A DNA stretch of 64,000 bases from a virus. Below, in pieces: positions 4,025 through 62,369 of this stretch. The DNA is taken from positions 62,001 through 126,000 of IMG/VR virus record IMGVR_UViG_3300021389_000005. One strand, written 5' to 3'. The position numbers and the translations under genes were made by a program. Position 1 is the stretch's first letter. The number at the start of each line of letters is the position of its first letter. The notes under the pieces were generated by a model. The model did not search any database, was not told the DNA's origin, and saw nothing but the letters and a program-made list of their open reading frames with translations.

Positions 4025-4921
4025 ATGGCACACGATAAACACACAACAAGTTCAATGAATCAAGATTTAAATCTTATGATGCCTAATAGACAGGCATGGT
4101 TAGATTTAGCAGGAGATTGGCAAGATCCACTAGATGATCCAATTATTGTGAATCATGAAGGATTTAATGTAGTAAGAGATGATATGATGGGCTTTGGATC
4201 TAAATGTAGATTTGGAGATATCTTAGTACAGAAAGCACCGACCGATACATTAGTATATGTACAACCTAGATTTGGATTCGCAGGAATTTCTCTTGCATAC
4301 TTAGCAAAAAAATATAATAAGAAATTAGTATTATTTATGCCATCTGGTAAAGTAATATCAGATCATCAAGCCATATGTATTGAAAGAGGTGCTATTGCTA
4401 AATTTAGAAGAATCGCAGCAATGCCTAATTTAAATAGAATTGCAAAACAATGGGCAGAAGATAACAACGCTACATTTATTCCACTAGGACTTAAACATGA
4501 ATTGGTAACTGCAGCTGCGGTAAAAGTTGCATATGATGTAGCAGAAAAACACGGATATCCGGAAGAAGTATGGTCAGCAATATCAACTGGAGTTTTACAA
4601 CGCTCTTTACAAATTGCATGGCCAGATGCTGAATTTAATGCAGTTGCAGTTTCTAGAAATATTCAGAACGGTGAATTGGGTAGAGCTAAAGTTTGGTCTC
4701 ATCCAAAGGCATTTGCATCAGATGTAAAACCAGAATTTGCCCCTCCGTTTCCATCAGCAATGAACTACGATGCAAAAGCTTGGGAATTTATGGTTAAGCA
4801 TGGAAATCAAGGAGCTTGGTTTTGGAATGTAGGTGGACAACCTTACCCAGAATCAGAAGAAACTAAAGAAAAAACAAATTCAAAAAGAGAATGGGGAGAA
4901 GTTTTAGAAATAGACAAATAA
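4025..4921 (+). CDS. PLP-dependent-fold enzyme (tryptophan synthase beta / ACC deaminase-like)
   Basis: The 298-residue sequence follows a fold-type II PLP enzyme. LVYVQPRFGFAGISLAYLAKKY corresponds to the Asn/Gly-rich loop and helix that hold the substrate carboxylate, then KKLVLFMPSGKV, a GAIAKFRRI strand, IPLGLKHELVTAAAV, and a glycine turn STGVLQRSLQIAWP where the phosphate-binding loop would be. The C-terminal PPFPSAMNYDAKAW and GAWFWNVGG blocks are typical of a phage subfamily I recall. The Schiff-base lysine may be the Lys in the LVQKAP segment. It lies 4 bp after the transferase-like gene. In phage thymidine hypermodification a PLP enzyme processes the amino-acid-substituted base; that role is inferred here. 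Confidence 0.6.
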   Translation: MAHDKHTTSSMNQDLNLMMPNRQAWLDLAGDWQDPLDDPIIVNHEGFNVVRDDMMGFGSKCRFGDILVQKAPTDTLVYVQPRFGFAGISLAYLAKKYNKKLVLFMPSGKVISDHQAICIERGAIAKFRRIAAMPNLNRIAKQWAEDNNATFIPLGLKHELVTAAAVKVAYDVAEKHGYPEEVWSAISTGVLQRSLQIAWPDAEFNAVAVSRNIQNGELGRAKVWSHPKAFASDVKPEFAPPFPSAMNYDAKAWEFMVKHGNQGAWFWNVGGQPYPESEETKEKTNSKREWGEVLEIDK

Positions 4922-4972: not shown

Positions 4973-5437
4973 ATGGCGAACATAGACAACAAATGCGCAG
5001 ATCTTGATATTCAAGATTATCACAAAGATACCAAAGACACTTTTGGTTTACTCTTTGACAAACAAAAAGAATTACAAGCTAGATTAGGTTTTGACTTTAA
5101 AGGTTGGAGCATTAAAGAGATTGCAGATTTCTGGATGGTGAATAAACATGCAATGAGCGACGAGCTTAATGAAATGTTTGATGCACTTGGAGGAATTAAC
5201 GACGGAATCGGCAATGCAGGTTGGAAATATTGGAAAAAGGATAATGCTAAGACTCCTGAAATGAAAATTGAAGATCTTAGTGAAGAAGACAAATTAGAGT
5301 TATTTTATGAGTGGATTGACGGTCTTCATTTTTATATGAACTTTGCAATTTCAATTGGCATGACAAGTAAAGACATTGTTAACTTGTACATGGCAAAGAA
5401 CGCAGAGAATCACGACAGACAAGAACGAGGATATTAA
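4973..5437 (+). CDS. dimeric all-alpha dUTPase (dUTPase_2 / MazG-like superfamily)
   Basis: Hydrolyses dUTP to dUMP and pyrophosphate. The 154-residue protein shows the family layout: a DKQKELQARLGFDF helix, SDELNEMFDALGG with acidic metal ligands, WKYWKKDN, a second acidic helix LFYEWIDGLHFYMNFA, and the C-terminal signature YMAKNAENHDRQERGY. This matches the dimeric dUTPases of phages and kinetoplastids rather than the trimeric beta fold. It follows the PLP-fold gene after a 51 bp gap. Besides keeping uracil out of DNA, it would supply dUMP for a modified pyrimidine pathway, though no thymidylate synthase or hydroxymethylase lies in this window. Confidence 0.8.
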   Translation: MANIDNKCADLDIQDYHKDTKDTFGLLFDKQKELQARLGFDFKGWSIKEIADFWMVNKHAMSDELNEMFDALGGINDGIGNAGWKYWKKDNAKTPEMKIEDLSEEDKLELFYEWIDGLHFYMNFAISIGMTSKDIVNLYMAKNAENHDRQERGY

Positions 5438-5458: not shown

Positions 5459-6862
5459 ATGCTATTAGATATAGAGCAAAAAGAAAACGAAGTCATAATC
5501 AGTTATTACGATAAAGAAGGCAAAGTATCATTTAAAAGATATTCTGTTAACAAATTTGAAAATTGGGTAGTTACTGAAGAAAAGGATCGTTGGAAAGATA
5601 TTAAATTTAGAAACTGGGATAATCGCCCAATTAAGAGATCTATCTCAAGAAGTTTTAATAAATTTAGTTTGCTCTATTTTATGGATTCTCTACCACAAAA
5701 GGATCAAGATGAAATCTTCGAATTTAATATGCCACGCACATACTTTGTGGATATTGAAACTGAAATTGTAGATGGTTTCCCAAAAGCAGAAGAAGCTAAA
5801 ACCAGAATTCTATCATTCTCTATCATTACACCTGAACGTAAAGCAATTGTTTTAGGTTTAGAAGATATGAGTTCAGATCAAATCAAAAAGATTGAAGATG
5901 ATACCAATGCTCATTTTAAAGATTATGATCAGGATTGGGAATTCAGTTATTACAAGTTTGATGACGAGTATAACATGGTATATACATTCTTACATAAGTT
6001 TTTACCTAAGTTCCCAATGATGACTGGTTGGAATTTCATCAACTATGACTGGCAGTATATAGTTAATAGGTGTAAAAGATTACAAATAGACCTGACTGAC
6101 GTGGCAATCACTGGATCTTTAGATAGAAACGATAGTAGACCATTACACATGGGAATATTAGATTATATGCAGCTATATGATAAATATGATAGATCAGTTG
6201 CTGTAAAAGAATCTAATTCATTAGACTTTGTATCTAGCGCAGTATTAGATGTTGCAAAGATTAAATACACTGGTGGTTTACAAGAACTATACGAAAATAA
6301 CTTCCAAAAATATATTTACTATAACGTGGTCGATTCATGTTTAGTATATTATATAGATAAACAACTTAGATCAATGGAAGTACTATTGACATTAGCAACT
6401 ATAACTAGAATGCCACTTTACAAAGCAGCATCTCCAGTGGCAGTAACAGAAGCGCTTATAGCTAGAAAGCTAATCGGTCAAAATAAAAAAATTGGAATGG
6501 AATGGAATAAAGAAGATGCAAAGAAAGACGGTAAATTTGAAGGAGCATTCGTTAAACAACCAATTGTAGGTTATTACTCTGGAGTTTCAGCGTTTGATTT
6601 TGCATCTCTATATCCATCAATTATGCGTCAATTTAATATATCTCCGGATGCATTTGTTGAACAAGTAAATGAAATGGATATTCCAGAAAGAAGAAAAGAT
6701 AAAGACGTAATCGTCTGTGAAAACGGAGTTGTTTATAAGAAAGAAGATAGTATTCTTAAAAAAATATTGGCAGATTTATATGGCCAACGTAAAGAATATA
6801 AAAAGACTTCTTATGAATATTATGAAAAAGCCCACGAACTAGAAAAAAAATTAAAGTCATAA
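5459..6862 (+). CDS. 43A: DNA polymerase family B, N-terminal half (exonuclease domain and palm motif A)
   Basis: A 467-residue fragment of T4 gp43-type polymerase. The 3'-5' exonuclease motif DIETE is near residue 97, further exonuclease motifs follow (GWNFINYDW, then YYNVVDS), and palm motif A reads DFASLYPSIMRQFNISP near residue 380. The protein stops in the fingers just after the YGQRKEYKK helix and lacks motifs B and C. Those are in a separate gene at 11475-12683, about 4.6 kb downstream. Together the two pieces total 869 residues, against 898 for T4 gp43. No intein motifs are visible at the break. The two chains presumably associate to form the active enzyme. Confidence 0.9.
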   Translation: MLLDIEQKENEVIISYYDKEGKVSFKRYSVNKFENWVVTEEKDRWKDIKFRNWDNRPIKRSISRSFNKFSLLYFMDSLPQKDQDEIFEFNMPRTYFVDIETEIVDGFPKAEEAKTRILSFSIITPERKAIVLGLEDMSSDQIKKIEDDTNAHFKDYDQDWEFSYYKFDDEYNMVYTFLHKFLPKFPMMTGWNFINYDWQYIVNRCKRLQIDLTDVAITGSLDRNDSRPLHMGILDYMQLYDKYDRSVAVKESNSLDFVSSAVLDVAKIKYTGGLQELYENNFQKYIYYNVVDSCLVYYIDKQLRSMEVLLTLATITRMPLYKAASPVAVTEALIARKLIGQNKKIGMEWNKEDAKKDGKFEGAFVKQPIVGYYSGVSAFDFASLYPSIMRQFNISPDAFVEQVNEMDIPERRKDKDVIVCENGVVYKKEDSILKKILADLYGQRKEYKKTSYEYYEKAHELEKKLKS

Positions 6863-6888
6863 ATTTAGAATCTCATGAATAATAAGCC

Positions 6889-6898
6889 GATATATAAT
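6889..6898 (+). promoter_or_regulatory. late-type promoter motif (class A) before nrdB
   Basis: GATATATAAT matches the motif found before the virion genes. It lies 125 nt upstream of nrdB, in the 160 bp gap after the polymerase fragment. The gap otherwise holds only a 20-codon ORF that I do not call. Confidence 0.4.
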
Positions 6899-7022
6899 AA
6901 CACTAGCAGCGCTGCTATTATTCTTACATACATCTAAATTATAGATTAGACTGGGTCTTAACTAAAGGCCCATTGTAGTCTCAACTGGATTCTGTAAAAA
7001 AACTAAACAAAATAATAGCAAT

Positions 7023-8033
7023 ATGTCAAATCTCTTTAAAGAACGTCTAGAATATAAACCGTTCGAATACCCTGAATATTACACCGAAGGTTGGCTTAAA
7101 CAAGCACAGGCTTTCTGGCTACACACTGAAATCTCAATGCAAGGTGATGTAAAAGACTGGAATGAAAACCTAATGCCACATGAAAAGAACTTAGTAGGCA
7201 ATATTCTTTTGGGTTTCGCCCAAACCGAATGCGCGGTATCTGATTACTGGACAAACATGGTTACCAGTTGGTTTCCTAAACATGAAATTAGACAAATGGC
7301 TATGATGTTCGGTTCACAAGAAACTATACACGCTGTTGCATATTCATATCTTAATGAAACTTTGGGTTTGGAGGATTTCGCAGCATTTCTTCATGAGCCT
7401 GCAACTGCCGAAAAATTTGAATTTTTAACTTCAACAACAGCTGATTACACACATGAAGATTTACAAACAAATCCTGTAGCAAGAAGGGAAGTAGCAAGAT
7501 CATTGGCTATTTTCAGTGCATTTGCAGAAGGTGTTTCTTTATATTCATCGTTTGCAGTACTTTACTCGTTTCAAATGAGAAACTTATTAAAAGGTATTGG
7601 ACAACAAATGAAGTGGTCTGTAAGAGATGAATCATTACATAGTAAAATGGGATGTCAGTTGTTTAGAGAGATGTGTAATGAATATCCTGAACTATTTGAA
7701 GAGATTCATGCAGATGTACTTAAAGCAGCCGAATACATGGTTGAAATGGAACACAAGTTTATTGATAAAATGTTTGAGCAAGGGGATCTTGCAAATATGG
7801 AAGCAGAAAATCTAAAACATTTTATTGTTAAAAGAGCTAACGAAAAAATCGCTGAATTAGGATATAAAGAAGGTCCATTTATGGAATTAGATAGTGAAAA
7901 GGCTAGTCATTTAGATTGGTTCTATCATTTAACAGGTGGACATACACACACAGACTTTTTTGCTATCAGACCTACTGATTATGCAAAAGCAGGAGAAGAC
8001 GAGAATTGGGACGAGGACGACTTATTCGATTAA
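7023..8033 (+). CDS. nrdB: ribonucleotide reductase class I, beta subunit
   Basis: Carries the metal cofactor and tyrosyl radical used by NrdA to reduce ribonucleotides. All ligands are visible in order: Glu69 in FAQTE, the ETIHAVAY block with Glu100, His103 and radical Tyr107, Glu169 in FAEG, and the DESLH block with Glu203 and His206. The length of 336 residues is normal for a compact NrdB. The C-terminus is acidic and ends DEDDLFD, as expected for a tail that docks on NrdA. nrdA follows after 14 bp. The pair sits between the two halves of the polymerase gene, which is not the T4 order. Confidence 0.92.
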   Translation: MSNLFKERLEYKPFEYPEYYTEGWLKQAQAFWLHTEISMQGDVKDWNENLMPHEKNLVGNILLGFAQTECAVSDYWTNMVTSWFPKHEIRQMAMMFGSQETIHAVAYSYLNETLGLEDFAAFLHEPATAEKFEFLTSTTADYTHEDLQTNPVARREVARSLAIFSAFAEGVSLYSSFAVLYSFQMRNLLKGIGQQMKWSVRDESLHSKMGCQLFREMCNEYPELFEEIHADVLKAAEYMVEMEHKFIDKMFEQGDLANMEAENLKHFIVKRANEKIAELGYKEGPFMELDSEKASHLDWFYHLTGGHTHTDFFAIRPTDYAKAGEDENWDEDDLFD

Positions 8034-8047
8034 TATAAATAATAAAA

Positions 8048-9880
8048 ATGAACAAAGAAGATAAAGTAAATTACGGAGCGTCCTTAGGTTGGGAGCTAGG
8101 TGTAGATTTCCCAACATGGGGAAACACAGAGATATATGTTAAAACAATAAGCAAAGGATATTGTTACCAAGATGAAACACCTAAAGATGCATACTGGAGA
8201 GTTGCAACTACGATTGCTAAAAGATTAGGCAAACCTGAACTTGCATCGAAATTCTTTGATTATATATGGAAGGGTTGGTTAAATCTAGCCTCACCTGTGC
8301 TTTCAAATACTGGATTAGAAAGAGGTTTACCTATTTCATGTTTTGGTATTGATGTTGCGGATTCAATTCACGATATCGGTGCTAAAAACCTAGAGATGAT
8401 GCTACTTGCCAAACATGGCGGTGGTGTAGGTACAGGAATTAATCAAATTAGACCAGCGGGTGCAAAAATTACAGGAAACGGTACATCAGATGGAGTTGTA
8501 CCTTTTTGCAAAATATTTGACTCTACGATACTTGCCACTAATCAGGGTTCTGTTCGTAGAGGAGCAGCAAGTGTTAACATTGATATTGAACATCCTGATT
8601 TCTGGGAATGGTTAGAAATTAGAGAACCTAAGGGTGATGTCAACAGACAATCATTAAATTTACACCAATGTGCAGTAATACCAGATGGTTTTATGCAAAA
8701 AGTTGAAGCTGGTGATAAAGAGTCTCGCAAAAAGTGGGCTGCGCTCTTAAGGAAGCGTAGATCTACAGGAGAGCCATATATCATGTACAAAGGAAATGTC
8801 AATAGAGCAAATCCAGAGGCATACTCTAAGAATGGATTAAAAGTTTATATGACTAACATTTGTTCAGAAATAACATTACATACTGACGAGAATCACTCAT
8901 TTGTTTGTTGCCTTTCTTCTGTAAATTTAGCAAAGTATAATGAATGGAAAGATACTGATCTGATTTACACTGCAACTTGGTTTTTAGATGGCGTTATGGA
9001 AGAGTTTATCCAAAAGGCTAAATTTATGAGAGGCTTTGAAAACTCAATTAGATCTGCAGAAAAAGGTAGAGCTTTAGGGCTTGGTGTATTAGGATGGCAT
9101 ACATATTTACAAGAAAAGAACATTCCGTTTGATTCTTTATCAGCTCAATTCGAAACACGTAAAATCTTTTCACAATTAAAGATAGAATCTGAAAGAGCAT
9201 CAAGAGATCTAGCTACAGAATATGGCGAACCATTATGGTGTGTAGGAACTGGAATGAGAAATACTCACTTAAGAGCTATTGCTCCAACAGTAACTAATTC
9301 TAAACTTAGTGGAAATGTTTCTCCAGGTATTGAGCCATGGGCAGCAAATCTATTAACAGAACAAACAGCTAAAGGTACTTTCATTAGAAAGAATCCAACA
9401 TTAGAACAAGTTTTAGATACAATAGGTAAGAATACTAAATCAACATGGGATAAAATACTAGAAGATGGTGGATCAGTATTAGGATTACCATGGATTGAAG
9501 ATTACTTTGTCTCATCATTTTCAGATAACGAAGGAACTTCAGGTATTCAAAAGCCACTAACTAAAAAGCAATTAGAAAAACTACCAACATTAGAACAAGC
9601 TGATTATATTCCAATGTCTGATGTATTTAGAACCTTCAAAGAAATTAATCAATTAGATTTAGTAAGACAAGCAGGTATTAGACAACAATATGTTGATCAA
9701 GCTGCAAGTTTAAATCTAGCGTTTCCAAAAGAGGCAGAACCTAAATTTATTAATCAAGTACATTTAGAAGCATATAGAAAGGGTGTAAAAACACTTTACT
9801 ACATGAGAACAGAATCAGTACTTAGAGGAGATATCGCTGCGGCAGCTACAGATCCAGATTGTGCTGCATGTGATGGATAA
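8048..9880 (+). CDS. nrdA: ribonucleotide reductase class I, alpha subunit
   Basis: The catalytic subunit, 610 residues, shorter than E. coli NrdA (about 760). It appears to lack an N-terminal ATP-cone, so activity-site regulation by dATP is probably absent. Visible catalytic features are the redox Cys in LPISCFG, the NICSEI block with the active-site Asn, Cys and Glu, the partner Cys in FVCCLSS, the Tyr-Tyr radical relay in TLYYMRT, and a C-terminal CAAC pair for re-reduction. It is co-directional with nrdB. A long structured 3' region ending in a strong terminator follows. Confidence 0.93.
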   Translation: MNKEDKVNYGASLGWELGVDFPTWGNTEIYVKTISKGYCYQDETPKDAYWRVATTIAKRLGKPELASKFFDYIWKGWLNLASPVLSNTGLERGLPISCFGIDVADSIHDIGAKNLEMMLLAKHGGGVGTGINQIRPAGAKITGNGTSDGVVPFCKIFDSTILATNQGSVRRGAASVNIDIEHPDFWEWLEIREPKGDVNRQSLNLHQCAVIPDGFMQKVEAGDKESRKKWAALLRKRRSTGEPYIMYKGNVNRANPEAYSKNGLKVYMTNICSEITLHTDENHSFVCCLSSVNLAKYNEWKDTDLIYTATWFLDGVMEEFIQKAKFMRGFENSIRSAEKGRALGLGVLGWHTYLQEKNIPFDSLSAQFETRKIFSQLKIESERASRDLATEYGEPLWCVGTGMRNTHLRAIAPTVTNSKLSGNVSPGIEPWAANLLTEQTAKGTFIRKNPTLEQVLDTIGKNTKSTWDKILEDGGSVLGLPWIEDYFVSSFSDNEGTSGIQKPLTKKQLEKLPTLEQADYIPMSDVFRTFKEINQLDLVRQAGIRQQYVDQAASLNLAFPKEAEPKFINQVHLEAYRKGVKTLYYMRTESVLRGDIAAAATDPDCAACDG

Positions 9881-9885
9881 AAAAT

Positions 9886-9973
9886 AAAGGTGTGGTTAAA
9901 TCCACGCTTTAGGACCGGGATAGTTCTCGGAACGAGGCCAGACGTATCGCTACTGTCTGGCCTCACTTTTTTA
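9886..9973 (+). terminator. structured nrdA 3' region with strong terminator
   Basis: Three consecutive hairpins follow nrdA. The first is GTGTGG/CCACGC around 9892-9908, the second CCGGGA/TCTCGG around 9915-9930, and the third a perfect 10-bp stem GAGGCCAGAC (9934-9943) with GTCTGGCCTC (9955-9964), followed by a T6 run. The last is a clear intrinsic terminator. The first two could form a stable RNA element. Confidence 0.85.
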
Positions 9974-10022
9974 GCACCAATTATCATATTAACAATTTAA
10001 GGTTAATAAAATTAGATAAAAT

Positions 10023-10052
10023 GTGAAACCTTTTTTATTTAATGGGTATAAT
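10023..10052 (+). promoter_or_regulatory. class B promoter (GAAAC - 22 - TATAAT)
   Basis: GAAACC at 10025 and TATAAT at 10047, with a 22-nt start-to-start distance shared with four other sites in the window (23 at a fifth). It would drive the small ORF at 10073 and the barrel protein gene at 10196. The 315 bp between nrdA and 10196 hold the terminator, this promoter and the 30-codon ORF. Confidence 0.65.
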
Positions 10053-10072
10053 AGTCCAATTAACAAAGAAAA

Positions 10073-10165
10073 ATGAACACAATTTCATTATACTTATTAA
10101 CAAAGTCTGCTAAAAATTACAGCAGCACGTCTATTTTTACTCCTAGAACTGTTATCACAGACTAA
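10073..10165 (+). CDS. possible small peptide (30 aa)
   Basis: ATG at 10073 lies 21 bp after a class B TATAAT and is preceded by an A-rich tract like the starts of neighbouring genes. The peptide MNTISLYLLT... is Ser/Thr-rich, with no recognisable domain. It ends 30 bp before the barrel protein gene. It could be a leader peptide or a chance ORF. Confidence 0.3.
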   Translation: MNTISLYLLTKSAKNYSSTSIFTPRTVITD

Positions 10166-10195
10166 TAGACTTATTTTAACCAAAACAATTTTAAT

Positions 10196-10612
10196 ATGAA
10201 AAATTTTATTTTAACATTAGCCCTTGCGGCTTTAACGACATTCGGTGCTAATGCACAGAATACAAAAGGTGACTGGTACGTAGGTACTGGCGATATTGCT
10301 AACACGGCTTGGACTGAACTATCAATCCAACCAACAATCGGATATGCATTCTCTGACAACTATATGGTTGGAATGAGTGTTGCACAGGCTGATTCAACTG
10401 AAGACATGGTCTTAGGTCTAGAAGGAAGATATTTCCACAAAGGATTCTTTGGATATGTAGCACTAAACGATTTTGATTTTGATCAACTTCAATTAGGTGT
10501 AGGTAAAATGTTCGCGTTCCATAAAGGATCTATGTTTGTAGATCCAAAGATCGTTTACGATTTAGGAATGGAAACAACGAACCTTCAAATCGGATTTGGT
10601 TTAAAGTTCTAA
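10196..10612 (+). CDS. exported outer-membrane beta-barrel-like protein (138 aa)
   Basis: A signal peptide (MKNFILTLALAALTTFGANAQ) with a signal-peptidase I site after ANA is followed by about 118 residues of alternating strands. These include WYVGTGDI, IQPTIGYAFSDNYMVGMS, LGLEGRYF, GYVALNDF and LQLGVGKMF, and the protein ends in aromatic KF. This is the look of a small Bacteroidota outer-membrane barrel. It is flanked by its own class B promoter and a strong terminator, so it is a self-contained transcription unit (moron-like) inserted between nrdA and the clamp gene. A role in altering the host surface, such as superinfection exclusion, is speculative. Confidence 0.65.
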   Translation: MKNFILTLALAALTTFGANAQNTKGDWYVGTGDIANTAWTELSIQPTIGYAFSDNYMVGMSVAQADSTEDMVLGLEGRYFHKGFFGYVALNDFDFDQLQLGVGKMFAFHKGSMFVDPKIVYDLGMETTNLQIGFGLKF

Positions 10613-10637
10613 ACTAAAACTGATTTGGTTAAAAGTT

Positions 10638-10670
10638 AAGCCCAAGTTTCTAGGATCTTGGGCTTTTTTT
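10638..10670 (+). terminator. intrinsic terminator
   Basis: Stem AAGCCCAAG (10638-10646) with CTTGGGCTT (10657-10665) and a T run to 10670. It ends the barrel-protein unit immediately before the gp45 promoter. Confidence 0.9.
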
Positions 10671-10700
10671 ATGAAACCTTTCGAAGCAATTCTATATAAT
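10671..10700 (+). promoter_or_regulatory. class B promoter for gp45
   Basis: GAAACC at 10673 and TATAAT at 10695, 22 nt start to start, directly after a terminator and 35 nt before the clamp start codon. Confidence 0.7.
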
Positions 10701-10729
10701 AATAAATCATTATCAAAAAACAAATAATT

Positions 10730-11473
10730 ATGAAACTTAAATTAGATCGTATTGACCAGCATGCTTTAACAGCATTCATCAACCGAGTAAAGCCAATTGA
10801 TTCTTTCATCTATATGAAAATTGCAGATGGAACAATTAATTCAACAGTTTATCTTCCACAAAGAGATGCAGTAAAACATCATTCTGTAGAAGCTAGCACC
10901 ATTTTTCAAGTAGAAGCATGGCCAGAAACTGACAAAGAAATGAAAATTGCATTCTTTGAGGGAAACAAAGTTATTGAAGCTATTAAGCACTTCGATGCAG
11001 ACGCAATTAAAGGTGAAATTGAATTCATCGAAAACGACAACGAATTAGTAGCAGCTTCGCTACGTATTTTTAATGACGAACTAGAAATTACTCTAGCTTG
11101 TTCAGAACCATCACTTGGCTTTAAAGATCTTACTCAAGAGCAAATTGATGTAATCTTTGCAAAAGAAGATAGTAAGTTTGACTTTAGCTTTGACACTCAC
11201 ATGATTGGTAAAGTTAAAAACTTATTTTCACTTGACAAAGACGAAACATTTAGTATTAAATCTGATGTTTCAGGTGTAAGTGTAAGTGGTAAATCATTTA
11301 GTGTTGTTATCAATCCAGATACAAGCGGAAATGGTGAAGTTACAGTATACAAAAAATACTTAAGCTTGCTTGACAAAGATGAACAAACAGTATATGTTTC
11401 AGGGTCAAAAGTTGTATTCAACTCAAATGACACAAACACATTACTAACAGTTTCAACTTGTCAAACAGCATAG
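10730..11473 (+). CDS. 45: sliding clamp, DNA polymerase accessory protein gp45-like
   Basis: A 247-residue protein, close to T4 gp45 (228). Its composition fits a clamp: acidic overall, with repeated beta-alpha-beta units and FSIKSDVSGVSVSGKSFSVVI strands in the second domain. The N-terminal domain (about 1-120) and C-terminal domain (about 125-247) look pseudo-duplicated. It lies one base upstream of the second polymerase fragment, echoing T4's clustering of clamp and polymerase. The clamp should tether the polymerase and, in late transcription, interact with gp55-type sigma. The call combines size, context and sequence impression; no catalytic motif can prove it. Confidence 0.7.
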   Translation: MKLKLDRIDQHALTAFINRVKPIDSFIYMKIADGTINSTVYLPQRDAVKHHSVEASTIFQVEAWPETDKEMKIAFFEGNKVIEAIKHFDADAIKGEIEFIENDNELVAASLRIFNDELEITLACSEPSLGFKDLTQEQIDVIFAKEDSKFDFSFDTHMIGKVKNLFSLDKDETFSIKSDVSGVSVSGKSFSVVINPDTSGNGEVTVYKKYLSLLDKDEQTVYVSGSKVVFNSNDTNTLLTVSTCQTA

Positions 11474-11474
11474 T

Positions 11475-12683
11475 ATGAATATCGAAGAGCTAGAAAATAA
11501 ATCTATCGAGGAATTAAATGATAATGAGGCGAAGCTGCTTGTAGATCACTACAAGCAGCTTTCAGCCAAATACACTGCATATGAACAAGCAGTTAAGTTA
11601 ACACTAAACTCGATCTACGGAGCCTTCGGTAATAAGTGGTTCCACTTTTTTAATATTGACATTGCCGAGTCAATTACAAAACAAGGTAAAAACGCAATTC
11701 TTTATTCAGAAACTATTCTCAACAAATATGTTAATGAGTTTTGGCACAAAGATGCTGCAGTACATTCTCACTTTGGAATTAAAGTAAAAGGTAAAATAGA
11801 AAAGCCAGCAGTAATTTATATTGATACAGATTCATGTTATGTACAGTTTCAAGATTTATATGAATCTATAATTTGGCCAGAAGAAACAGAGAAAATGGAA
11901 ATCGATGTGTTTATTTTAGCACTTTATGGTTTCAGACTTAGAGATTACATTACTAAGTGTATGGAGAAATATGCAGATAAAAGAAACTCAGATAATTATT
12001 TGATGTTTGAATTAGAAGCGCTTGCATATAATGGTATTTGGATGTCTAAGAAAAAGTATATTCAGAACATTGCATGGGATGATAAATTAGAAACCACAGA
12101 CAGGCATACTTCATTAAAGAAAATTAAAACAATTGGTTTTGATACTATTCAATCATCTACGCCTAAATTTGCAAGAGAGAAACTAGTTGAAGCTCTTAAA
12201 ATTATATTTAAAAGTAGAGTAACTCCAACAGCAGAAGATCTTCAAACATTAGTTGTTTTCATGAAAGAAACAAAAAAGCAATTTAAACTTGCAGATATTG
12301 ACGAGATTTCTTTTAATAGAAGGACTAACAATATTGACAAATATATTGTTGATGATCAGAAAGAATTTCAAATAGGTCTAAAATGTCCAGCAAACGTTAA
12401 AGCAGCCGGATATTACAATTACTTATTGAATAACAATAAAAAATATAAAAACAAATATAAGGTTATCGGTAACGGTGAAAAACTAAAGATCTACAATTGT
12501 AAATCACCAATATCTGAAGTATATGCATATATGCCAGGAGATCATCCTTATGAAATTGCACCAGAAATTGATTACGATACTCAATTTGAAAAAGCAATGA
12601 TCGATCCTCTTAATAGAGTATTAACAGCGATTGGTCTACAAACACTAGATACTAACCTAATTTACGCATCGTCGTTATTTTAA
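11475..12683 (+). CDS. 43B: DNA polymerase family B, C-terminal half (fingers, palm motifs B and C, thumb)
   Basis: A 402-residue fragment. Motif B KLTLNSIYGAFGN is near residues 40-52, and motif C YIDTDS, with the two catalytic Asp, is near 115. A thumb region follows, and the C-terminus SSLF resembles the clamp-binding tail of T4 gp43. The first about 30 residues form a charged helix that would rebuild the fingers with the C-terminal helix of the fragment at 5459-6862. It starts one base after the clamp gene stop. Motif A and the exonuclease are absent, so this product cannot work alone. Confidence 0.9.
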   Translation: MNIEELENKSIEELNDNEAKLLVDHYKQLSAKYTAYEQAVKLTLNSIYGAFGNKWFHFFNIDIAESITKQGKNAILYSETILNKYVNEFWHKDAAVHSHFGIKVKGKIEKPAVIYIDTDSCYVQFQDLYESIIWPEETEKMEIDVFILALYGFRLRDYITKCMEKYADKRNSDNYLMFELEALAYNGIWMSKKKYIQNIAWDDKLETTDRHTSLKKIKTIGFDTIQSSTPKFAREKLVEALKIIFKSRVTPTAEDLQTLVVFMKETKKQFKLADIDEISFNRRTNNIDKYIVDDQKEFQIGLKCPANVKAAGYYNYLLNNNKKYKNKYKVIGNGEKLKIYNCKSPISEVYAYMPGDHPYEIAPEIDYDTQFEKAMIDPLNRVLTAIGLQTLDTNLIYASSLF

Positions 12684-14241: not shown

Positions 14242-14530
14242 CCAGGATAATCTACCCATAAAATACATTATGGGCATTGAAAAAGATTTACCTGAATATC
14301 CAACCGGCTTCGATATACTTTACAAAGAGATTCAATTGTGTGTTAGAATGCCAGATAGACATAAAGGCAACTTTACACTACATGCTCTAAAAACCTATAG
14401 GTTCCAAGAAACAGAAGAGTCTAAATTATTAGATTCTATAAATGATCTAATAAACTTAGGTATAGTAGAAACAGTAAACACTGAGAAAGGTAAACTTTCT
14501 TGGAAAATAATTCAAAATCCATTCCAATGA
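14231..14530 (+). CDS. hypothetical protein (99 aa) between uvsX and the oxygenase
   Basis: Overlaps the end of uvsX by 11 bp and the next gene by 4 bp (ATGA), so it is translationally coupled on both sides. The C-terminal half (ESKLLDSINDLINLGIVETV...KLSWKII) looks like a small winged-helix unit. T4 uvsX neighbours do not include an obvious homologue. Function unknown; a DNA-binding accessory role is only a suggestion. Confidence 0.6.
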   Translation: MQINQDNLPIKYIMGIEKDLPEYPTGFDILYKEIQLCVRMPDRHKGNFTLHALKTYRFQETEESKLLDSINDLINLGIVETVNTEKGKLSWKIIQNPFQ

Positions 14531-15111
14531 TAGCAGTATTTGATAATTTTATAAAAGATGAATCTCTTTTAGCAGAGATAAGATCCAACATACCATATTT
14601 ATTTAATGATCCAGGTGTATACAAGTGGTATGACGGATGGTTTAATAATTCTCCTGCAAATAATACTGCAAAGAAAATAATTAAACAGATATGGGCCGAT
14701 AATTGTCCAATAACTGAAACATTCAATATTTCAGGTTTTGAATATTGGACCGGAATTCAAGAAGCTAAAGGAATGAGCGATGAATGGGAAGATAATTTAG
14801 AAATGCATTTTGATAAAGATGAAGCTTGGTTTGAAAAAACAGGAGAAGTAAAAGCACCCATAATAGGTTCTATTTATTATCCAGACCAAGAAGAATTTGA
14901 AGGAGGCATGCTAGAAATTTATACTAATGGTGAAGAGAATCCGCCTGAAATTGTTTACGCAAAACCAAATAGATTAATAATATTCAACGCAGGAAAAGAT
15001 GTACATAGGGTTACAGTTGTTACAAAAGGCCAAAGGCTGGCAATTGCCATAAATTTATGGGAAGAAATACCTTATAGTAAACAAATCGGTAGGTTTAACA
15101 TAGAAGGATAA
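14527..15111 (+). CDS. 2-oxoglutarate/Fe(II)-dependent oxygenase (prolyl-4-hydroxylase-like)
   Basis: A double-stranded beta-helix oxygenase by motif. HFDKDE near residue 93 (the HxD iron ligands) is followed by GSIYYPDQEEFEGGMLEIY, then the distal His in DVHRV near 157, with Arg in KGQRLAIAINLW as the 2-oxoglutarate ligand. All three iron ligands are present. I prefer the ATG at 14527, which overlaps the upstream stop as ATGA, to the ATG at 14500. It sits in the recombination operon between uvsX and the helicase. The substrate could be a protein side chain or a nucleobase; the P4H-like spacing favours protein, and the modification-like cassette at 0.9-5.4 kb keeps DNA possible. Confidence 0.75.
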   Translation: MIAVFDNFIKDESLLAEIRSNIPYLFNDPGVYKWYDGWFNNSPANNTAKKIIKQIWADNCPITETFNISGFEYWTGIQEAKGMSDEWEDNLEMHFDKDEAWFEKTGEVKAPIIGSIYYPDQEEFEGGMLEIYTNGEENPPEIVYAKPNRLIIFNAGKDVHRVTVVTKGQRLAIAINLWEEIPYSKQIGRFNIEG

Positions 15112-45483: not shown

Positions 45484-45526
45484 ACATACTTAAAAAATAT
45501 TTCTCGAAGACTTGAACTTAAATTTT

Positions 45527-48500
45527 ATGAAAAGCGCCTTTGATAGGATGGGTGCTCAAAGCAAAGCGATAGAAGAACTCAATGAGTCTGCTAAAGTAAC
45601 CGCAGCATCGGTTACTGTTGGTGGAGATTTGTATTCGAGAATAGACGCACTTGTTACTGTACTGGAAGATATGGCCACTGGTAAATCCGGAGGTGGAGGT
45701 AATAAGACAAGTATTAAAGAAGCTATGGCCATGGCAATCATGGCACCCACACTAAAGCCAATAGGTACAGGTTTGGGCTATATAGTAGAAGCACTTAACA
45801 AATTAGGACCTGACGGAGAGAAAAAAGCTAAGGCAATGGAAGGCATTGCTGGCGCTTTATCAAAACTCGGGGCAGTCGGTAAGTCTATATTCGCATTCGC
45901 AGGGTATATGGCACTTTCAATTCCACTTTTAATAATAACAGCAATGGCATCGCCCTTAATAGCGATAGCTCTTTTTGCGACAATTGGTGCAGTGATGTTA
46001 GTGGCCAAAATACTAGATAAAAAGAAATTAAAGGCATTAGCACAACTTAAAAAAGTAGGTTTAGCCCTTTTGGTTTTTGCTGGATCATTAGCTTTAATAT
46101 CTTTATTTATAGGACCTGCAATTAAAGGAGCTATAGGAGTTGCTATTATGTTAGGTATAATAGGTATAACCCTGAAACTACTTGATATGTTAGGCATTTT
46201 AGATGGTAAGAGGTTAAAAGAATTCGGAACAGGAATGATGTTATTAGGACTTGGTATATTAGCCATGGCTATTTCATTCGCATTAGTTCAATTAATAATG
46301 CCACAAGCAATGAAAGGTGCCTTATGGGCATTGGGTATTATATTAGTAATGGGATTAATGTTCTGGATGCTAGACAAAATGGGAGTCGATAAGAGCATGC
46401 GAGAAGGTATTATGGCAATTGCCATGGCCGGTATTGCTATTGTCGGTTTAGGTCTTGCATTTGCGATATTTAAGTATTTGATTCCAGATATGGAAACAAT
46501 TTGGGCAGCTATTAAAATGTTAGCAATTATCGGTGGAACATTTATGGTAATAGGATTAATGCAAAAACCAATTATGACAGGTGCTAAAGCTCTATTATGG
46601 GCTTCATTAGCGATAGTAGTTGTAGCTCTTTCATTTATAATCTTAAATGCATTAATTCCACCTGGAGAAATGACACTTGAATCGTTTATGCCTCTTTTAG
46701 TAGTAGCTGGAATAGCAGCGGCTTTTGTGATCATAGGTTTAGGTGCTAGTTTAATTCAACAAGGTGCTATCGCAATGATATTAGCAGGTGTTTCTGTTAT
46801 ACTAATAGCTCTTGCAGTAAGAATGATTGCCAAACCTTTACAAAAAGGAGGATGGGAACTTATTGGCCAAATAGGAGCTTTAATAGCAATGTTAGGTATA
46901 GAATTTGGTTTATTCGGTTTAGCAGCTCCGTTTATTTTAGCGGGTGCAGCAGCGATGTTAGTCGCTGGTGTAGCGATGATAGCAATAGCTGGAGGTACCG
47001 CAGCGATGGGTGCAGTATTAAACAAAAGTAAAAAATTATTAGAACCTGCTCCTTCTGGTGAAGGATCAAACTTGTCTGTTTTACTAAATACAATTGGCGA
47101 CGCATTTAGTATGTGGCCATGGAGAGCAGCAGGTATATTAGTTGGTGCAGCTGCAATGTTAACTGCAGGTCTTGCATTAATATCAATCGGAGCCGGTATT
47201 AGTAAATTCCAGGTAATTTCTGAGAAAGCTGATTTACCTAAATTGGCTGAGAATATAGCATTTATGGTCGGTTCATTAGCCGTTCCTTTTAATTTAATAG
47301 GTGGAGGTGGAACACTTTCAGTTAAGGATCCAATGACTGGGAAGATGGTAGACATTAAATTCACTGGCGGTGGAGGTGGTTTCTTCGGCTTAGGTGGTAG
47401 TAATCCAGTAGCTATGGGTATTTCTTCTGTACATGGTATGGGAGCTGCATTAACTGGAATTGCTAAAGGTGTTCAGAACATGGCTAATCTTAAATTTCCA
47501 ACAGGATTTGATAAAGACGGTAATGCAACTGGATATGAAACACTATCAGGAGACATTTGGAAAACAGTTATCGAAAACACCGTAACTATGGTCGGTTCAT
47601 TAGCAGTTCCATTTGCTATGATAGGTAACGGCCTTACAATAACAGATCCAGAAACTGGTCAACAAATTAAATTACCAGGTGGGGGTAAAAAAGGACTTTT
47701 AGCTTCTATATTCGGTGGAGGTGAATCTAACCCGGTAGCAGATGGTATTTCTTCTGTACAAGGTATGGGTGAAGCTTTAACTGGTATAGCTATGGGTGTA
47801 CAAGCCATGGCGATGCTTAAAATGCCAACAGGTTTTGATCCAGAAACTGGCGAGCCAACAGGTTTTGAGCCCTTTAATTTAGAGCACGCTAAAACAGTAA
47901 CCGCAAACACTAAGACATTAATAACAGCACTATCTGGTACTTTTGCACAAGTAGGTAATTCACCCGATGCTAAAACTAGTTGGTGGGGAGGAAAGTCTAC
48001 AATACAAAAAGGTATTGATCTCGTACAGGGTATGGGAACACCTCTTAAAAATTTAGCAACAGGTGTTCAAGATATGGCCAATTTAAAATTCGCCAAAGGA
48101 TATGATGCTGAAGGTAAAGCCACAGGGTATTACACTATTTCAGATCTAGATAAAATTGTACCTAAAATTGAAAGTAATTCACAGATGTTAATTAAAGCAC
48201 TTACAAATGTATTTACTACTATAGGTGGTAGTGACGCTGCTAAGGGCAGAGGATGGACATTCTGGAAACCTACCAAATTTGAAAAAGGTATTAAATTAGT
48301 TGAAAAAATTGCAGATCCATTTAAAAAATTAGCGGGAGCTGCTAAGAATGCTGCAAATATAGTTAAAGACATTTCGAACGCACAAGAGGTTCAAGAAAAG
48401 GTTAAAGCTATGATTCAAGCTATTACTGAGGCAGGTGGAGAAAGATCAGAATCAGAAATAGAAACTTCAATTAGAATGGTAAATGCACTAGGGCACAACT

Positions 48501-49396
48501 ACGATATATTTAGTTATGCTATACCTAAAATAGTATCAGCCGTGAATAGCTTCCAAGCTAAACAAGGTAGAGCATTTATGAGCATTTTTGGTGGCGAATC
48601 AACACCCAAAACTCTTGTTCCAAAGCTAATGATGTTAAAGGGACTTAGCACAGCATATGGTAAAATGTCTTGGGCAATTCCAAAAATGACAGCAGCTATT
48701 AATGGTTTAGTACCAGAAGCTATGACTTCATTTGTTAAAATAATAGGTGGTTCCACATTCTTCCCAGGACAAGCTGAAGCAAAAACAAAAATGTTCATTG
48801 TTATAGGTAAAACTTTCTCACGCATGGGCGATGCTGTTCCTAAGATTTCATCAGCTGTTAATCAACTAGATCCATTTAAGGCAACTATTATGAAAAATAT
48901 GTTTATGGGTCCAGTTAGTAAAATAAGACCGATAGCAGGTTACACTGCTCAAGCATTATTATGGAGATCTATTGGTAGAAATATGGAAGCTAATGCTAAA
49001 TCTTTTCCTGAAGTTGCTAGTGCTATTAATTCAATGGATCTTACCAAACTAAAAGAATCTCGTCAAATGTTCGAGGCACTTGCAGTTCTTTCTAGTGCAG
49101 ATAGTCCAGATGATATATTAGAGGCAATGGGTGAATCTCTTGAAAAGGCTTTAGAGAATTTGGCAGAGATGATTGAGAAATTTAAAACTTCCGTAAGTGA
49201 AGGTAACGCTGAAAATGCCGGCATATTGGAAAAAGCAGCAGGTGGACTAGGAAGAACAATAGGTGCATTTGCTTCTGGAGTTACTGGAGGTGGAAGTGGA
49301 GGAGATTCAGCACAGGTTGTTGCAGCTATTAACAAAATGCATAGATCATTATCCGGTTCTGGTATTAGAATCAAAAATGTAGATGAACTAGGATAA
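45527..49396 (+). CDS. tail tape measure protein with membrane segments and internal repeats
   Basis: 1289 residues from the ATG at 45527, preferred to a TTG five codons earlier. After a charged N-terminus of about 100 residues, residues 120-580 are a chain of long hydrophobic Gly/Ala/Met/Ile segments (for example FAGYMALSIPLLIITAMASP), typical of tape measures that form a membrane channel. From about 625 there are at least three copies of an 80-120-residue repeat centred on GISSVHGMGAALTGIAKGV, GISSVQGMGEALTGIAMGV and GIDLVQGMGTPLKNLATGV. The C-terminal part is soluble and helical. T4's tape measure gp29 has 590 residues, so a much longer tail is expected. Confidence 0.85.
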   Translation: MKSAFDRMGAQSKAIEELNESAKVTAASVTVGGDLYSRIDALVTVLEDMATGKSGGGGNKTSIKEAMAMAIMAPTLKPIGTGLGYIVEALNKLGPDGEKKAKAMEGIAGALSKLGAVGKSIFAFAGYMALSIPLLIITAMASPLIAIALFATIGAVMLVAKILDKKKLKALAQLKKVGLALLVFAGSLALISLFIGPAIKGAIGVAIMLGIIGITLKLLDMLGILDGKRLKEFGTGMMLLGLGILAMAISFALVQLIMPQAMKGALWALGIILVMGLMFWMLDKMGVDKSMREGIMAIAMAGIAIVGLGLAFAIFKYLIPDMETIWAAIKMLAIIGGTFMVIGLMQKPIMTGAKALLWASLAIVVVALSFIILNALIPPGEMTLESFMPLLVVAGIAAAFVIIGLGASLIQQGAIAMILAGVSVILIALAVRMIAKPLQKGGWELIGQIGALIAMLGIEFGLFGLAAPFILAGAAAMLVAGVAMIAIAGGTAAMGAVLNKSKKLLEPAPSGEGSNLSVLLNTIGDAFSMWPWRAAGILVGAAAMLTAGLALISIGAGISKFQVISEKADLPKLAENIAFMVGSLAVPFNLIGGGGTLSVKDPMTGKMVDIKFTGGGGGFFGLGGSNPVAMGISSVHGMGAALTGIAKGVQNMANLKFPTGFDKDGNATGYETLSGDIWKTVIENTVTMVGSLAVPFAMIGNGLTITDPETGQQIKLPGGGKKGLLASIFGGGESNPVADGISSVQGMGEALTGIAMGVQAMAMLKMPTGFDPETGEPTGFEPFNLEHAKTVTANTKTLITALSGTFAQVGNSPDAKTSWWGGKSTIQKGIDLVQGMGTPLKNLATGVQDMANLKFAKGYDAEGKATGYYTISDLDKIVPKIESNSQMLIKALTNVFTTIGGSDAAKGRGWTFWKPTKFEKGIKLVEKIADPFKKLAGAAKNAANIVKDISNAQEVQEKVKAMIQAITEAGGERSESEIETSIRMVNALGHNYDIFSYAIPKIVSAVNSFQAKQGRAFMSIFGGESTPKTLVPKLMMLKGLSTAYGKMSWAIPKMTAAINGLVPEAMTSFVKIIGGSTFFPGQAEAKTKMFIVIGKTFSRMGDAVPKISSAVNQLDPFKATIMKNMFMGPVSKIRPIAGYTAQALLWRSIGRNMEANAKSFPEVASAINSMDLTKLKESRQMFEALAVLSSADSPDDILEAMGESLEKALENLAEMIEKFKTSVSEGNAENAGILEKAAGGLGRTIGAFASGVTGGGSGGDSAQVVAAINKMHRSLSGSGIRIKNVDELG

Positions 49397-55334: not shown

Positions 55335-56186
55335 ATGCCAGAATTAGCCGAACTTAAATTAACATCAGATTACGTAAACACATGTTCAGAAGGGGCAACA
55401 TATACACGTGTAGAAAAGAATCCTCAACATAAAGGGGCAGAACTAGATATTCCGTTTAAATACTTTAGTATTAAATCAGAAAGTAAAGGTAAAGAAATTG
55501 TACTAACCATCAAAGATGAAGATAGTAAAGCCTTTATTCCTATTCGCATTACTATGGGAATGTCAGGGCATTTTCAATTAACAAATACTGGCCAGGAACC
55601 TAAACATGCACATCTCAAGTTTCATCGTAAAGATGGCACTACACTGTCATTTGTAGATGTACGCAGATTTGGTAAATGGACACAAGGTGTAGCATGGAAT
55701 GAGGGTAGAGGACCAGATCCAACATCAGATTTTGATGCTTTCTTTTTAAACATTATGACCAACCTTACAAAAAGAACATTTCGCAAACCACTTTATGAAG
55801 TTCTTATGGATCAAAAATGGTTTAATGGTATTGGCAATTATTTAAGAGCTGAAATTATATTCAGAGCAGAGAACGTTGATCCATTTCTTCCAGCTTCTCA
55901 ACAAATTGCAAAATACCCAAAGATCTTGGAATTGTGTAGAGATATTCCAATGTTGGCATATGCCAAAGGTGGTGGAAGCATTAGAGATTGGGACAATCCA
56001 TTTGGATCTGATGCAATTCAAGAAAAATTTATGCTCTGTTATGGAAACAAAACCATGGAAACTCGTATAGATTCTAAGAAGCGTAGATTTTGGTATGATT
56101 CTAAATGGAACGCACCTATGCATAGAGACGATTTAAAGGATTGGGATTACTATAGCGGCTTACCAAGCCCAGCAGCATATAAATAA
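55335..56186 (+). CDS. Fpg/Nei-family DNA glycosylase-like protein without zinc finger
   Basis: 283 residues. The N-terminus PELAELKL retains Pro2-Glu3, the nucleophile and acid of formamidopyrimidine/endonuclease VIII glycosylases. MGMSGHFQL and LSFVDVRRFGKW are Fpg core strands, and the helix-two-turn-helix appears as WFNGIGNYLRAEIIFRAENVDPF. The C-terminal finger (MLCYGNKTMETRIDSKKRRFWY) has one Cys and no CxxC pairs, so it would be zincless as in NEIL1. It could repair oxidised bases or act on a phage-specific base. It lies downstream of ligase. Confidence 0.82.
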   Translation: MPELAELKLTSDYVNTCSEGATYTRVEKNPQHKGAELDIPFKYFSIKSESKGKEIVLTIKDEDSKAFIPIRITMGMSGHFQLTNTGQEPKHAHLKFHRKDGTTLSFVDVRRFGKWTQGVAWNEGRGPDPTSDFDAFFLNIMTNLTKRTFRKPLYEVLMDQKWFNGIGNYLRAEIIFRAENVDPFLPASQQIAKYPKILELCRDIPMLAYAKGGGSIRDWDNPFGSDAIQEKFMLCYGNKTMETRIDSKKRRFWYDSKWNAPMHRDDLKDWDYYSGLPSPAAYK

Positions 56187-61687: not shown

Positions 61688-61772
61688 GCCGTTGTGATGG
61701 AATTGGTAGACATGACAGACTTAAAATCTGTTGGGCTGAAAGCCCGTGGCGGTTCGAGCCCGCCCAGCGGTA
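61688..61772 (+). tRNA. tRNA-Leu (anticodon UAA)
   Basis: Class II tRNA: acceptor GCCGTTG/CAGCGGT, anticodon stem ACAGA/TCTGT with loop CTTAAAA, a long variable arm and a GGTTCGAGCC T arm. CCA is not encoded. Confidence 0.93.
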
Positions 61773-61781
61773 CTTAGATAT

Positions 61782-61855
61782 GGACCAGTAGCACAACTGG
61801 ATAGTGCAGCACCCTTCTAAGGTGCCGGTTATAGGTTCGAATCCTATCTGGTTCA
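61782..61855 (+). tRNA. tRNA-Arg (anticodon UCU)
   Basis: Acceptor GGACCAG/CTGGTTC, anticodon stem GCACC/GGTGC with loop CTTCTAA, and a TAGGTTCGAATCCTA T arm. Reads AGA. CCA is not encoded. Confidence 0.93.
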
Positions 61856-61860
61856 CAAAT

Positions 61861-61936
61861 GGTCTGGTAGTTCAGTTTTGGTTAGAATACTTGCCTGTCA
61901 CGCAAGGGGTCGCGAGTTCGAGTCTCGTCCAGACCG
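61861..61936 (+). tRNA. tRNA-Asp (anticodon GUC)
   Basis: Acceptor GGTCTGG/CCAGACC with discriminator G, anticodon stem CTTGC/GCAAG and loop CTGTCAC. The bases after the discriminator read CCA, so this is the one tRNA here that appears to encode its 3' end. Confidence 0.93.
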
Positions 61937-61946
61937 CCAATAACTT

Positions 61947-62018
61947 GCTCCGTTCGTCTAACGGTTAGGACATCAGGTTTTCATCCTGAAAATAGGAGTT
62001 CGATTCTCCTACGGAGTA
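61947..62018 (+). tRNA. tRNA-Glu (anticodon UUC)
   Basis: Acceptor GCTCCGT/ACGGAGT, anticodon stem TCAGG/CCTGA with loop TTTTCAT, and a TAGGAGTTCGATTCTCCTA T arm. CCA is not encoded. Confidence 0.93.
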
Positions 62019-62027
62019 CTAATTAAA

Positions 62028-62100
62028 TGTGCCTTGGTGTAATTGGCAACACGTCGGTTTTTGGTACCGAAGAGTCGGGGTTCGAGCCCCTGAGGCACAA
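62028..62100 (+). tRNA. tRNA-Gln (anticodon UUG)
   Basis: Acceptor TGTGCCT/AGGCACA, anticodon stem TCGGT/ACCGA with loop TTTTGGT, and a CGGGGTTCGAGCCCC T arm. CCA is not encoded. Confidence 0.92.
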
Positions 62101-62186
62101 CTTTTTAAACGTTATTTGACTTACCGAAAAAAATAGATCATAGATCGAGTCTTGCACCTCTACATAGATTAAGGTGTTTTCAACAT

Positions 62187-62260
62187 GGGGATGTAGCTCA
62201 GTTGGTTAGAGCAGGACTCTTATATAGTCAAGGTCGTGGGTTCGATTCCCGCCATCCCTA
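62187..62260 (+). tRNA. tRNA-Ile (anticodon UAU)
   Basis: Acceptor GGGGATG/CATCCCT, D stem GCTC/GAGC, anticodon stem GGACT/AGTCA (outer pair G-A mismatched) with loop CTTATAT, T stem GTGGG/CCCGC. The UAU anticodon reads AUA, common in this genome. CCA is not encoded (CCCA follows). Confidence 0.88.
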
Positions 62261-62285
62261 CCCAAAGACAACTATGATTTATTAA

Positions 62286-62358
62286 GATCTCTTAGCTCAG
62301 TTGGTAGAGCATCACACTTTTAATGTGAGGGTCCAGGGTTCGAGCCCCTGAGGGATCA
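62286..62358 (+). tRNA. tRNA-Lys (anticodon UUU)
   Basis: Acceptor GATCTCT/AGGGATC, anticodon stem TCACA/TGTGA with loop CTTTTAA, T stem CAGGG/CCCTG. CCA is not encoded. Confidence 0.93.
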
Positions 62359-62369
62359 CAGGTTACGAA

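What the first reader, a model, noticed from the sequence alone, without database searches (positions are those of the whole stretch)
5459..12683. DNA polymerase split in the fingers, with nrdBA, a barrel gene and the clamp gene between the halves
Exonuclease and motif A are in one gene; motifs B and C are in another 4.6 kb away. Split gp43 genes are known in some Aeromonas T4-like phages, where a homing endonuclease lies at the break. Here the interval carries functional replication and nucleotide genes and no homing gene, so the split seems to have been domesticated. The charged helices at the new termini could form the fingers coiled coil in trans.
Basis: partly seen in the sequence, partly recalled or inferred. 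Interest (0 to 1): 0.75.

Follow-up and report, generated by a model that had tools for sequence, protein, structure and literature searches.

The report
Ancient two-gene phage DNA polymerase
This marine T4-like phage makes its replicative DNA polymerase as two separate proteins cut at the tip of the "fingers" domain; the cut is an old, shared trait of a large group of related phages (many of whose cultured members infect Bacteroidetes), so the locus is ordinary for that group, although the group's split polymerase seems little studied.

Summary
The N-half (5459-6862) carries the exonuclease, motif A and fingers helix N; the C-half (11475-12683) carries helix P, motifs B and C and the thumb. 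All catalytic residues are kept. Between them lie nrdB, nrdA, a probable outer-membrane barrel gene and a sliding clamp, confirmed by AlphaFold/Foldseek as PCNA-fold. No intact polymerase was found in the 126-kb record or in three longer relatives.

The split is neither local nor recent. All 158 close IMG/VR loci with a readable N-half stop there; 67 distinct intervals all keep nrdB-nrdA-clamp-polC. The same fingertip break occurs in PAU, MA9V-2, pT24, PTm1, Lak and 460-735-kb megaphages; in several the halves lie far apart or on opposite strands. Aeromonas 44RR and Acinetobacter 133 break at the same place, but one origin for all is rejected (AU p = 2e-8). Some relatives carry a homing endonuclease, a TnpB or motif-C split inteins near the C-half.

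Most likely the halves assemble as a heterodimer through the natural two-helix fingers hairpin. Splicing is unlikely: the clamp stop lies 1-4 nt before the C-half start in 66 of 67 intervals. New variant of a known kind (split gp43).

The parts
5459..6862 (+). N-half of family B DNA polymerase (467 aa): exonuclease (D98, E100, D197, Y288/D292), palm motif A (D380, DFASLYPS), fingers helix N with dNTP-contact R444 (QRK)
   Evidence: (phrog_2062 2.5e-80); residues invariant in 35 relatives
6596..6619 (+). codons of motif A (DFASLYPS, D380 = catalytic aspartate of palm)
   Evidence: alignment to RB69 gp43 DLTSLYPS
6863..7022 (.). 160-nt spacer between the N-half and nrdB; no Rfam match, so no recognisable intron
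7023..8033 (+). nrdB, ribonucleotide reductase small chain
   Evidence: PF00268 2.1e-56
8048..9880 (+). nrdA, ribonucleotide reductase large chain
   Evidence: PF02867 2.3e-88
10196..10612 (+). small secreted, probably outer-membrane beta-barrel protein (138 aa, signal peptide, C-terminal F); optional, present in 19 of 67 intervals
   Evidence: sequence; weak PF13505 0.0045, below cut-off; census
10730..11473 (+). sliding clamp (PCNA fold, 247 aa); present between the halves in all 67 related intervals
   Evidence: AlphaFold pLDDT 85, Foldseek PCNA E 1.3e-10; homologous to the pre-polC ORFs of PAU, pT24, PTm1, MA9V-2
11475..12683 (+). C-half of family B DNA polymerase (402 aa): fingers helix P with motif B (K41, KLTLNSIYG), palm motif C (YIDTDS, D117/D119), thumb; starts 1 nt after the clamp stop codon
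   Evidence: (phrog_1918 2.2e-69)
11811..11837 (+). codons around motif C (V113-C121, VIYIDTDSC); uninterrupted here, but the site of a split intein in PTm1, LR756500 and Lak relatives

Best explanation
A T4-like family B replicative polymerase is encoded as two chains that fold together into one heterodimeric enzyme. The cut is in the loop at the tip of the fingers, so each chain keeps one complete fingers helix (N on the first chain, P on the second), and the two helices pair as they do in intact enzymes. The active site is composite: motif A Asp and the helix-N Arg come from the N-half, motif B Lys and the motif C Asps from the C-half, so neither half should be able to polymerise alone. Shown: the split, its position, retained residues, selection, clade-wide conservation, lack of splicing elements. 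Inferred: heterodimer assembly and activity, by analogy with phage 25 gp43A/43B.
For: Domain and residue mapping. 158 of 158 loci at >=60% identity stop after the N-half. 67 distinct intervals all have both halves on one strand. dN/dS 0.012-0.045 on both halves. Distances of the two halves correlate at r 0.90, Mantel p 0.001. Same fingertip break in PAU, MA9V-2, LR756500, LR756504, LR756501 and LR745206, and separate N and C genes also in pT24, PTm1 and Lak. Halves 282 kb apart on opposite strands in LR756504, and C pieces upstream of N in Lak-B1: they work as separate genes. Clamp stop to C-half start is 1-4 nt in 66 of 67 intervals, leaving no room for a 3' intron half; no Rfam intron. Termini oppositely charged in 44/44, and the signs are swapped together in the LR756504/LR745206 lineage. 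Split gp43A/43B of phage 25 co-purify and are active (PMC2988022).
Against: No complex was modelled, and the C-half alone modelled poorly (pLDDT 53), which fits an orphan half but also a shallow alignment. Charge complementarity seems to exist in intact T4 too, so it does not prove trans pairing, and it is not seen in PAU and MA9V-2. No expression or biochemical data. The window's record (126 kb) may be incomplete, so an intact second polymerase elsewhere in this phage is unlikely but not formally excluded.
Confidence: 0.92

Rival explanations
1. The halves are rejoined by RNA trans-splicing or by protein trans-splicing (split intein) at the fingertip.
For: Introns and split inteins interrupt gene 43/PolB in other phages (PMC2988022, PMC2993671, PMC6892783). 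Split inteins do occur in relatives of this phage, but at motif C.
Against: The N-half ends only 18-27 residues after QRKxYK, too short for a usual N-intein, and the C-half begins with fingers sequence. The C-half start abuts the clamp stop. No Rfam match. Halves can lie 282 kb apart on opposite strands.
Confidence: 0.03
2. The split polymerase is a decaying or non-essential remnant, and replication depends on another polymerase (phage or host).
For: Jumbo phages of 'group 2.2' were reported to carry an extra minimal PolIII alpha (PMC7824862); the window's record may be incomplete.
Against: Strong purifying selection and invariant catalytic residues. No PolIII alpha (PF07733) in G000-G003, PAU or pT24. 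Only one main N and one C match in G001-G003, 170-212 kb; two further weak N-profile hits there cover the exonuclease part only.
Confidence: 0.03
3. The split is an assembly or sequencing artefact.
For: One relative (L018/G001) does show frameshifts in polN, nrdA and clamp, probably read errors.
Against: 4.6 kb of intact, conserved genes lies between the halves; 67 distinct sequences and several isolates agree.
Confidence: 0.005
4. All fingertip-split gp43 genes (Aeromonas, Acinetobacter and this clade) inherit one shared split, with repeated re-fusion in T4, cyanophages and others.
For: Break at the same place, with similar ends.
Against: T4 groups with Acinetobacter 133 (100/99) and 44RR next to them, far from this clade; one clade of all split rows rejected, p 1.9e-8. 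A split ancestor with several re-fusions is not excluded by the tree alone but is less parsimonious.
Confidence: 0.07

Closest known systems
Split gp43 (43A/43B) of Aeromonas phages 44RR/25 and Acinetobacter phage 133
   Same: Same two-chain design with the cut at the same fingertip loop; in phage 25 the chains co-purify and have polymerase activity (PMC2988022).
   Different: Independent origin by the tree. In 44RR the halves are 49 nt apart, in 133 about 2.9 kb of small genes lie between; phage 25 has a seg homing gene. Here the clamp and nrdBA lie between, and the clamp abuts the C-half.
Two-gene polymerases of Sphingomonas phage PAU, Tenacibaculum pT24 and PTm1, Chryseobacterium MA9V-1/2, Prevotella Lak and the LR7565xx megaphages
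   Same: Same clade and same fingertip break; in PAU, pT24, PTm1, MA9V-2 and LR756500 a homologous clamp lies between the halves upstream of the C-half.
   Different: Other genes in the interval differ (dut in PAU, homing endonuclease in PTm1, TnpB in MA9V-2); the C-half is cut again by a split intein at motif C in PTm1, LR756500 and Lak; halves dispersed in Lak and the 634-735-kb phages.
MIJ3 split PolB with intein and HNH endonuclease (PMC6892783)
   Same: PolB coded in two genes in a jumbo phage.
   Different: MIJ3 halves carry intein blocks and are expected to be rejoined; the window's halves carry none.
Split archaeal PolB (Methanothermobacter; Nanoarchaeum equitans), from memory and not tested here
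   Same: Two-chain family B polymerases.
   Different: Cellular archaea; Nanoarchaeum uses a split intein.

Membership tests
T4-type family B DNA polymerase (gp43) | Exonuclease and polymerase motifs A, B, C with catalytic Asp/Glu/Lys | tested here: met
   All present across the two chains and invariant
T4-type family B DNA polymerase (gp43) | Single continuous chain | tested here: not met
   Two ORFs 4.6 kb apart
Fingertip-split gp43 (43A/43B type) | Break between fingers helix N (QRK) and helix P (motif B Lys) | tested here: met
   Window N ends 23 aa after R444, C starts 40 aa before K41; 44RR and Acj133 comparable
Fingertip-split gp43 (43A/43B type) | Common origin with the Aeromonas/Acinetobacter split | tested here: not met
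   AU test p 1.9e-8
Fingertip-split gp43 (43A/43B type) | Chains associate and are active | not testable with these tools
   Known for phage 25 only (PMC2988022)
Split-intein 'fractured gene' | IntN at the end of the first chain and IntC at the start of the second | tested here: not met
   Ends are fingers helices; no intein sequence. Inteins in relatives are at motif C
Gene interrupted by homing endonuclease or group I intron | Endonuclease ORF or intron at the break | tested here: not met
   None in the window's interval nor among the 10 extra ORFs of relatives scanned; present in PTm1 and MA9V-2
Sliding clamp (PCNA/gp45 superfamily) | Two-domain clamp fold | tested here: met
   Foldseek PCNA E 1.3e-10, TM 0.6-0.7; sequence comparison with T4 gp45 found nothing

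The most novel reading that the evidence does not exclude
A second, independent and ancient lineage of fingertip-split replicative polymerase, fixed across a large clade of T4-like, jumbo and mega phages, in which the clamp gene was the ancestral occupant of the break and is translationally coupled to the C-half, so that clamp and C-half are made and perhaps assembled together, with the new termini held by a charge zipper whose polarity flipped as a unit in one megaphage branch.
Probability: 0.3. Interest if true: 0.6.

Novelty: new variant of a known kind. Interest (0 to 1): 0.45.

Why it matters
If the halves assemble, a core replication enzyme has stayed split for a long time in a widespread phage group, with the same cut made at least twice independently at the fingertip. 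That points to the fingertip as a place where a B-family polymerase can be cut at little cost. The set of relatives (two chains; three genes with a motif-C split intein; halves adjacent, interrupted or far apart) is a ready series for testing how split enzymes evolve and why they are not re-fused. It also warns annotators and marker-gene studies that use PolB: each half is often named a whole 'DNA polymerase', and the C-half may be missed.

Tried and rejected
Rfam search of the region for introns: nothing. Search for a PolIII alpha as alternative replicase: none in six records. Placing intact Flavobacterium MaF61: long branch, unsupported position; it may be sister or re-fused (AU p 0.31 for being outside the split rows). 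Looking for close intact relatives in IMG/VR: the 21 intact loci found (L242-L263) are cyanophage/pelagiphage-type; those put on the tree fall with S-PM2 and Melnitz. Sequence comparison of the clamp with T4 gp45: no signal, fold comparison needed. Structure of the C-half alone: low confidence, not used further. Search of GTDB genomes for a host hint: none. PAU-type and MaF61-type searches of IMG/VR found no new relatives. Motif-C surroundings in LR745206, LR756501, LR756504, pT24, MA9V-2: no intein signature seen.

Full report
WHAT IS THERE. Two same-strand ORFs, 5459-6862 and 11475-12683, encode the two parts of one T4-type family B DNA polymerase. Pfam assigns exonuclease and the first part of the polymerase profile (positions 23-137) to the first, and positions 152-237 to the second. 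PHROGs places them in two half-polymerase families, phrog_2062 (502 positions) and phrog_1918 (382), as well as in the full-length phrog_262. Against solved structures the first aligns with RB69 gp43 88-487 and the second with 553-832. The interval holds nrdB and nrdA, a 138-aa secreted barrel-like protein with only a sub-threshold OMP_b-brl match, and a 247-aa protein without database matches, whose AlphaFold model (pLDDT 85) matches PCNA chains at E ~1e-10: the clamp. The rest of the window is a T4-like myovirus with portal, major head protein, terminase, tail sheath, DnaB-type helicase, SbcCD, UvsX and ligase.

WHERE THE CUT IS. The cut lies at the tip of the fingers. The N-half ends 23 residues after R444 of the QRK motif in helix N; the C-half begins 40 residues before K41 of motif B in helix P. 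Compact intact marine polymerases have about 40 residues between these two points, T4 78, and the joined window halves 64, so nothing is missing. Exonuclease D98/E100, motif A D380, R444, K41 and motif C D117/D119 are invariant in the relatives aligned. From established knowledge of RB69 gp43, the dNTP is held by the helix-N Arg and the helix-P Lys, and the metals by the motif A and motif C Asp. Here those residues are on different chains, so the active site is necessarily composite.

NOT LOCAL, NOT RECENT. All 158 IMG/VR loci at >=60% identity with a readable N-half stop after it. In 67 distinct intervals with both halves, spacing is 3,660-5,778 nt (median 4,341); nrdB, nrdA and clamp are always present, the barrel in 19; the clamp stop is 1-4 nt before the C-half start in 66 of 67, with one 1-nt overlap. 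nrdAB is replaced by roughly 29-39%-identical versions in 15 intervals. dN/dS is 0.012-0.045 on both halves, and distances of the halves correlate (Pearson 0.90, Mantel p 0.001).

RELATIVES. Separate N and C polymerase genes occur in PAU (gp105/gp110), MA9V-2 (192/196), pT24 (gp165/gp168), PTm1 (236/239+241), LR756500, LR756504, LR745206, LR756501, Lak-B1 and Lak-C1; where the motifs could be located the break is at the fingertip. In PAU, pT24, PTm1 and MA9V-2 the ORF before the C-half (or before a mobile gene) is homologous to the window clamp (hhalign E 3e-8 to 8e-6; unrelated ORFs gave E > 0.1), and LR756500 has a 35% identical clamp between the halves. So N-half ... clamp - C-half is probably the ancestral order, with the rest of the interval variable: dut in PAU, a homing endonuclease in PTm1 (phrog_3339, 1e-8), a TnpB in MA9V-2. 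In the largest phages the halves are dispersed: 282 kb apart on opposite strands in LR756504, about 100 kb apart in LR745206, and C pieces upstream of N in Lak-B1. PTm1, LR756500 and Lak carry a second cut, at motif C (TD|S), with split intein ends on both pieces; no intein was seen at the fingertip cut.

ORIGIN. On a maximum-likelihood tree of 29 polymerases T4 groups with Acinetobacter 133 (100/99), with 44RR next to them, well away from the 22 split rows of the window's clade. Holding all split rows in one clade is rejected (p 1.9e-8); holding the 22 without intact MaF61 is not (p 0.31). Adding 12 intact marine polymerases does not change this. So the same fingertip loop was most likely cut at least twice. 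Whether MaF61 is the unsplit sister or a re-fusion is unresolved.

HOW IT MOST LIKELY WORKS. The two chains assemble into one enzyme through the palm and the fingers hairpin. Precedent: phage 25 gp43A and gp43B co-purify and are active (PMC2988022). Splicing is unlikely: no Rfam intron, no intein at the ends, no room upstream of the C-half, and dispersal of the halves in relatives. Suggestive of trans pairing: the N-half tail is positive and the C-half head negative in 44 of 44 close relatives, and the signs are swapped together in LR756504 and LR745206. This is weak evidence: T4 appears to show the same complementarity within one chain, the swap is one event and was not tested statistically, and PAU and MA9V-2 do not show opposite charge. 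The clamp/C-half junction suggests translational coupling, which is inferred, not shown.

NOVELTY. A fingertip-split gp43 is known in Aeromonas and Acinetobacter phages. The MA9V-1 genome paper lists two polymerase genes without comment (PMC10537231), PTm1 is annotated as 'intein-containing split DNA polymerase precursor', and split polymerases are mentioned for MIJ3 (PMC6892783) and OM43 phages (PMC10580990). No paper found in the held library describes the clade-wide split, its independent origin or the clamp between the halves; most subscription journals were not searchable. I rate it a new variant of a known kind; for the window alone it is an ordinary member of its clade.

LIMITS. The 67 intervals are distinct sequences, not independent phages. 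The window's record is 126 kb and may be incomplete. Alignment depth was shallow for structure prediction, and no complex could be modelled.

Noticed in passing
7023-8033 and 8048-9880; relatives L033, L043, L048, L159 and others: nrdB-nrdA between the polymerase halves is swapped for roughly 29-39% identical versions at the same position in 15 of 67 related intervals: replacement in place.
   Followed up: partly
between nrdA and clamp in L030/L031, L054, L070, L021, L033: Accessory-gene hot spot: a CCA-adding enzyme (minus strand), a ferritin-like protein, a 2-hydroxyacid dehydrogenase and uncharacterised proteins occupy the place where this window has the barrel gene.
   Followed up: partly
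L007 (PTm1), L008 (LR756500), L190/L221 (Lak-B1), L189/L223 (Lak-C1): Polymerase in three genes: fingertip split plus a split intein exactly at motif C (TD|S); Lak read with TAG as Gln.
   Followed up: partly
10196-10612: Phage-encoded secreted barrel-like protein in the replication region, under purifying selection (dN/dS 0.03-0.11); may alter the host surface.
   Followed up: no
61688-62359 and 62400-63545: Seven tRNA genes followed by a tRNA nucleotidyltransferase (CCA-adding) gene.
   Followed up: no
4025-4921: Threonine-dehydratase-like PLP enzyme gene (phrog_7093, 4.6e-39) upstream of the N-half.
   Followed up: no
14500-15111 and 55335-56186: 2OG-Fe(II) oxygenase and Fpg/MutM-type DNA glycosylase genes.
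   Followed up: no
45512-49396: 1294-aa ORF overlapped by several long minus-strand ORFs (45778-46266, 46288-46734, 46756-47364); coding strand and nature not checked.
   Followed up: no
L018 (G001): polN, nrdA and clamp are broken into several frames in this assembly, probably read errors.
   Followed up: no
starts at 4973, 5459, 7023, 8048, 10196, 10730, 11475, 13132: No clear Shine-Dalgarno sequence before the eight starts examined; A/T-rich leaders, as expected for a Bacteroidetes host; the host itself is not shown.
   Followed up: no
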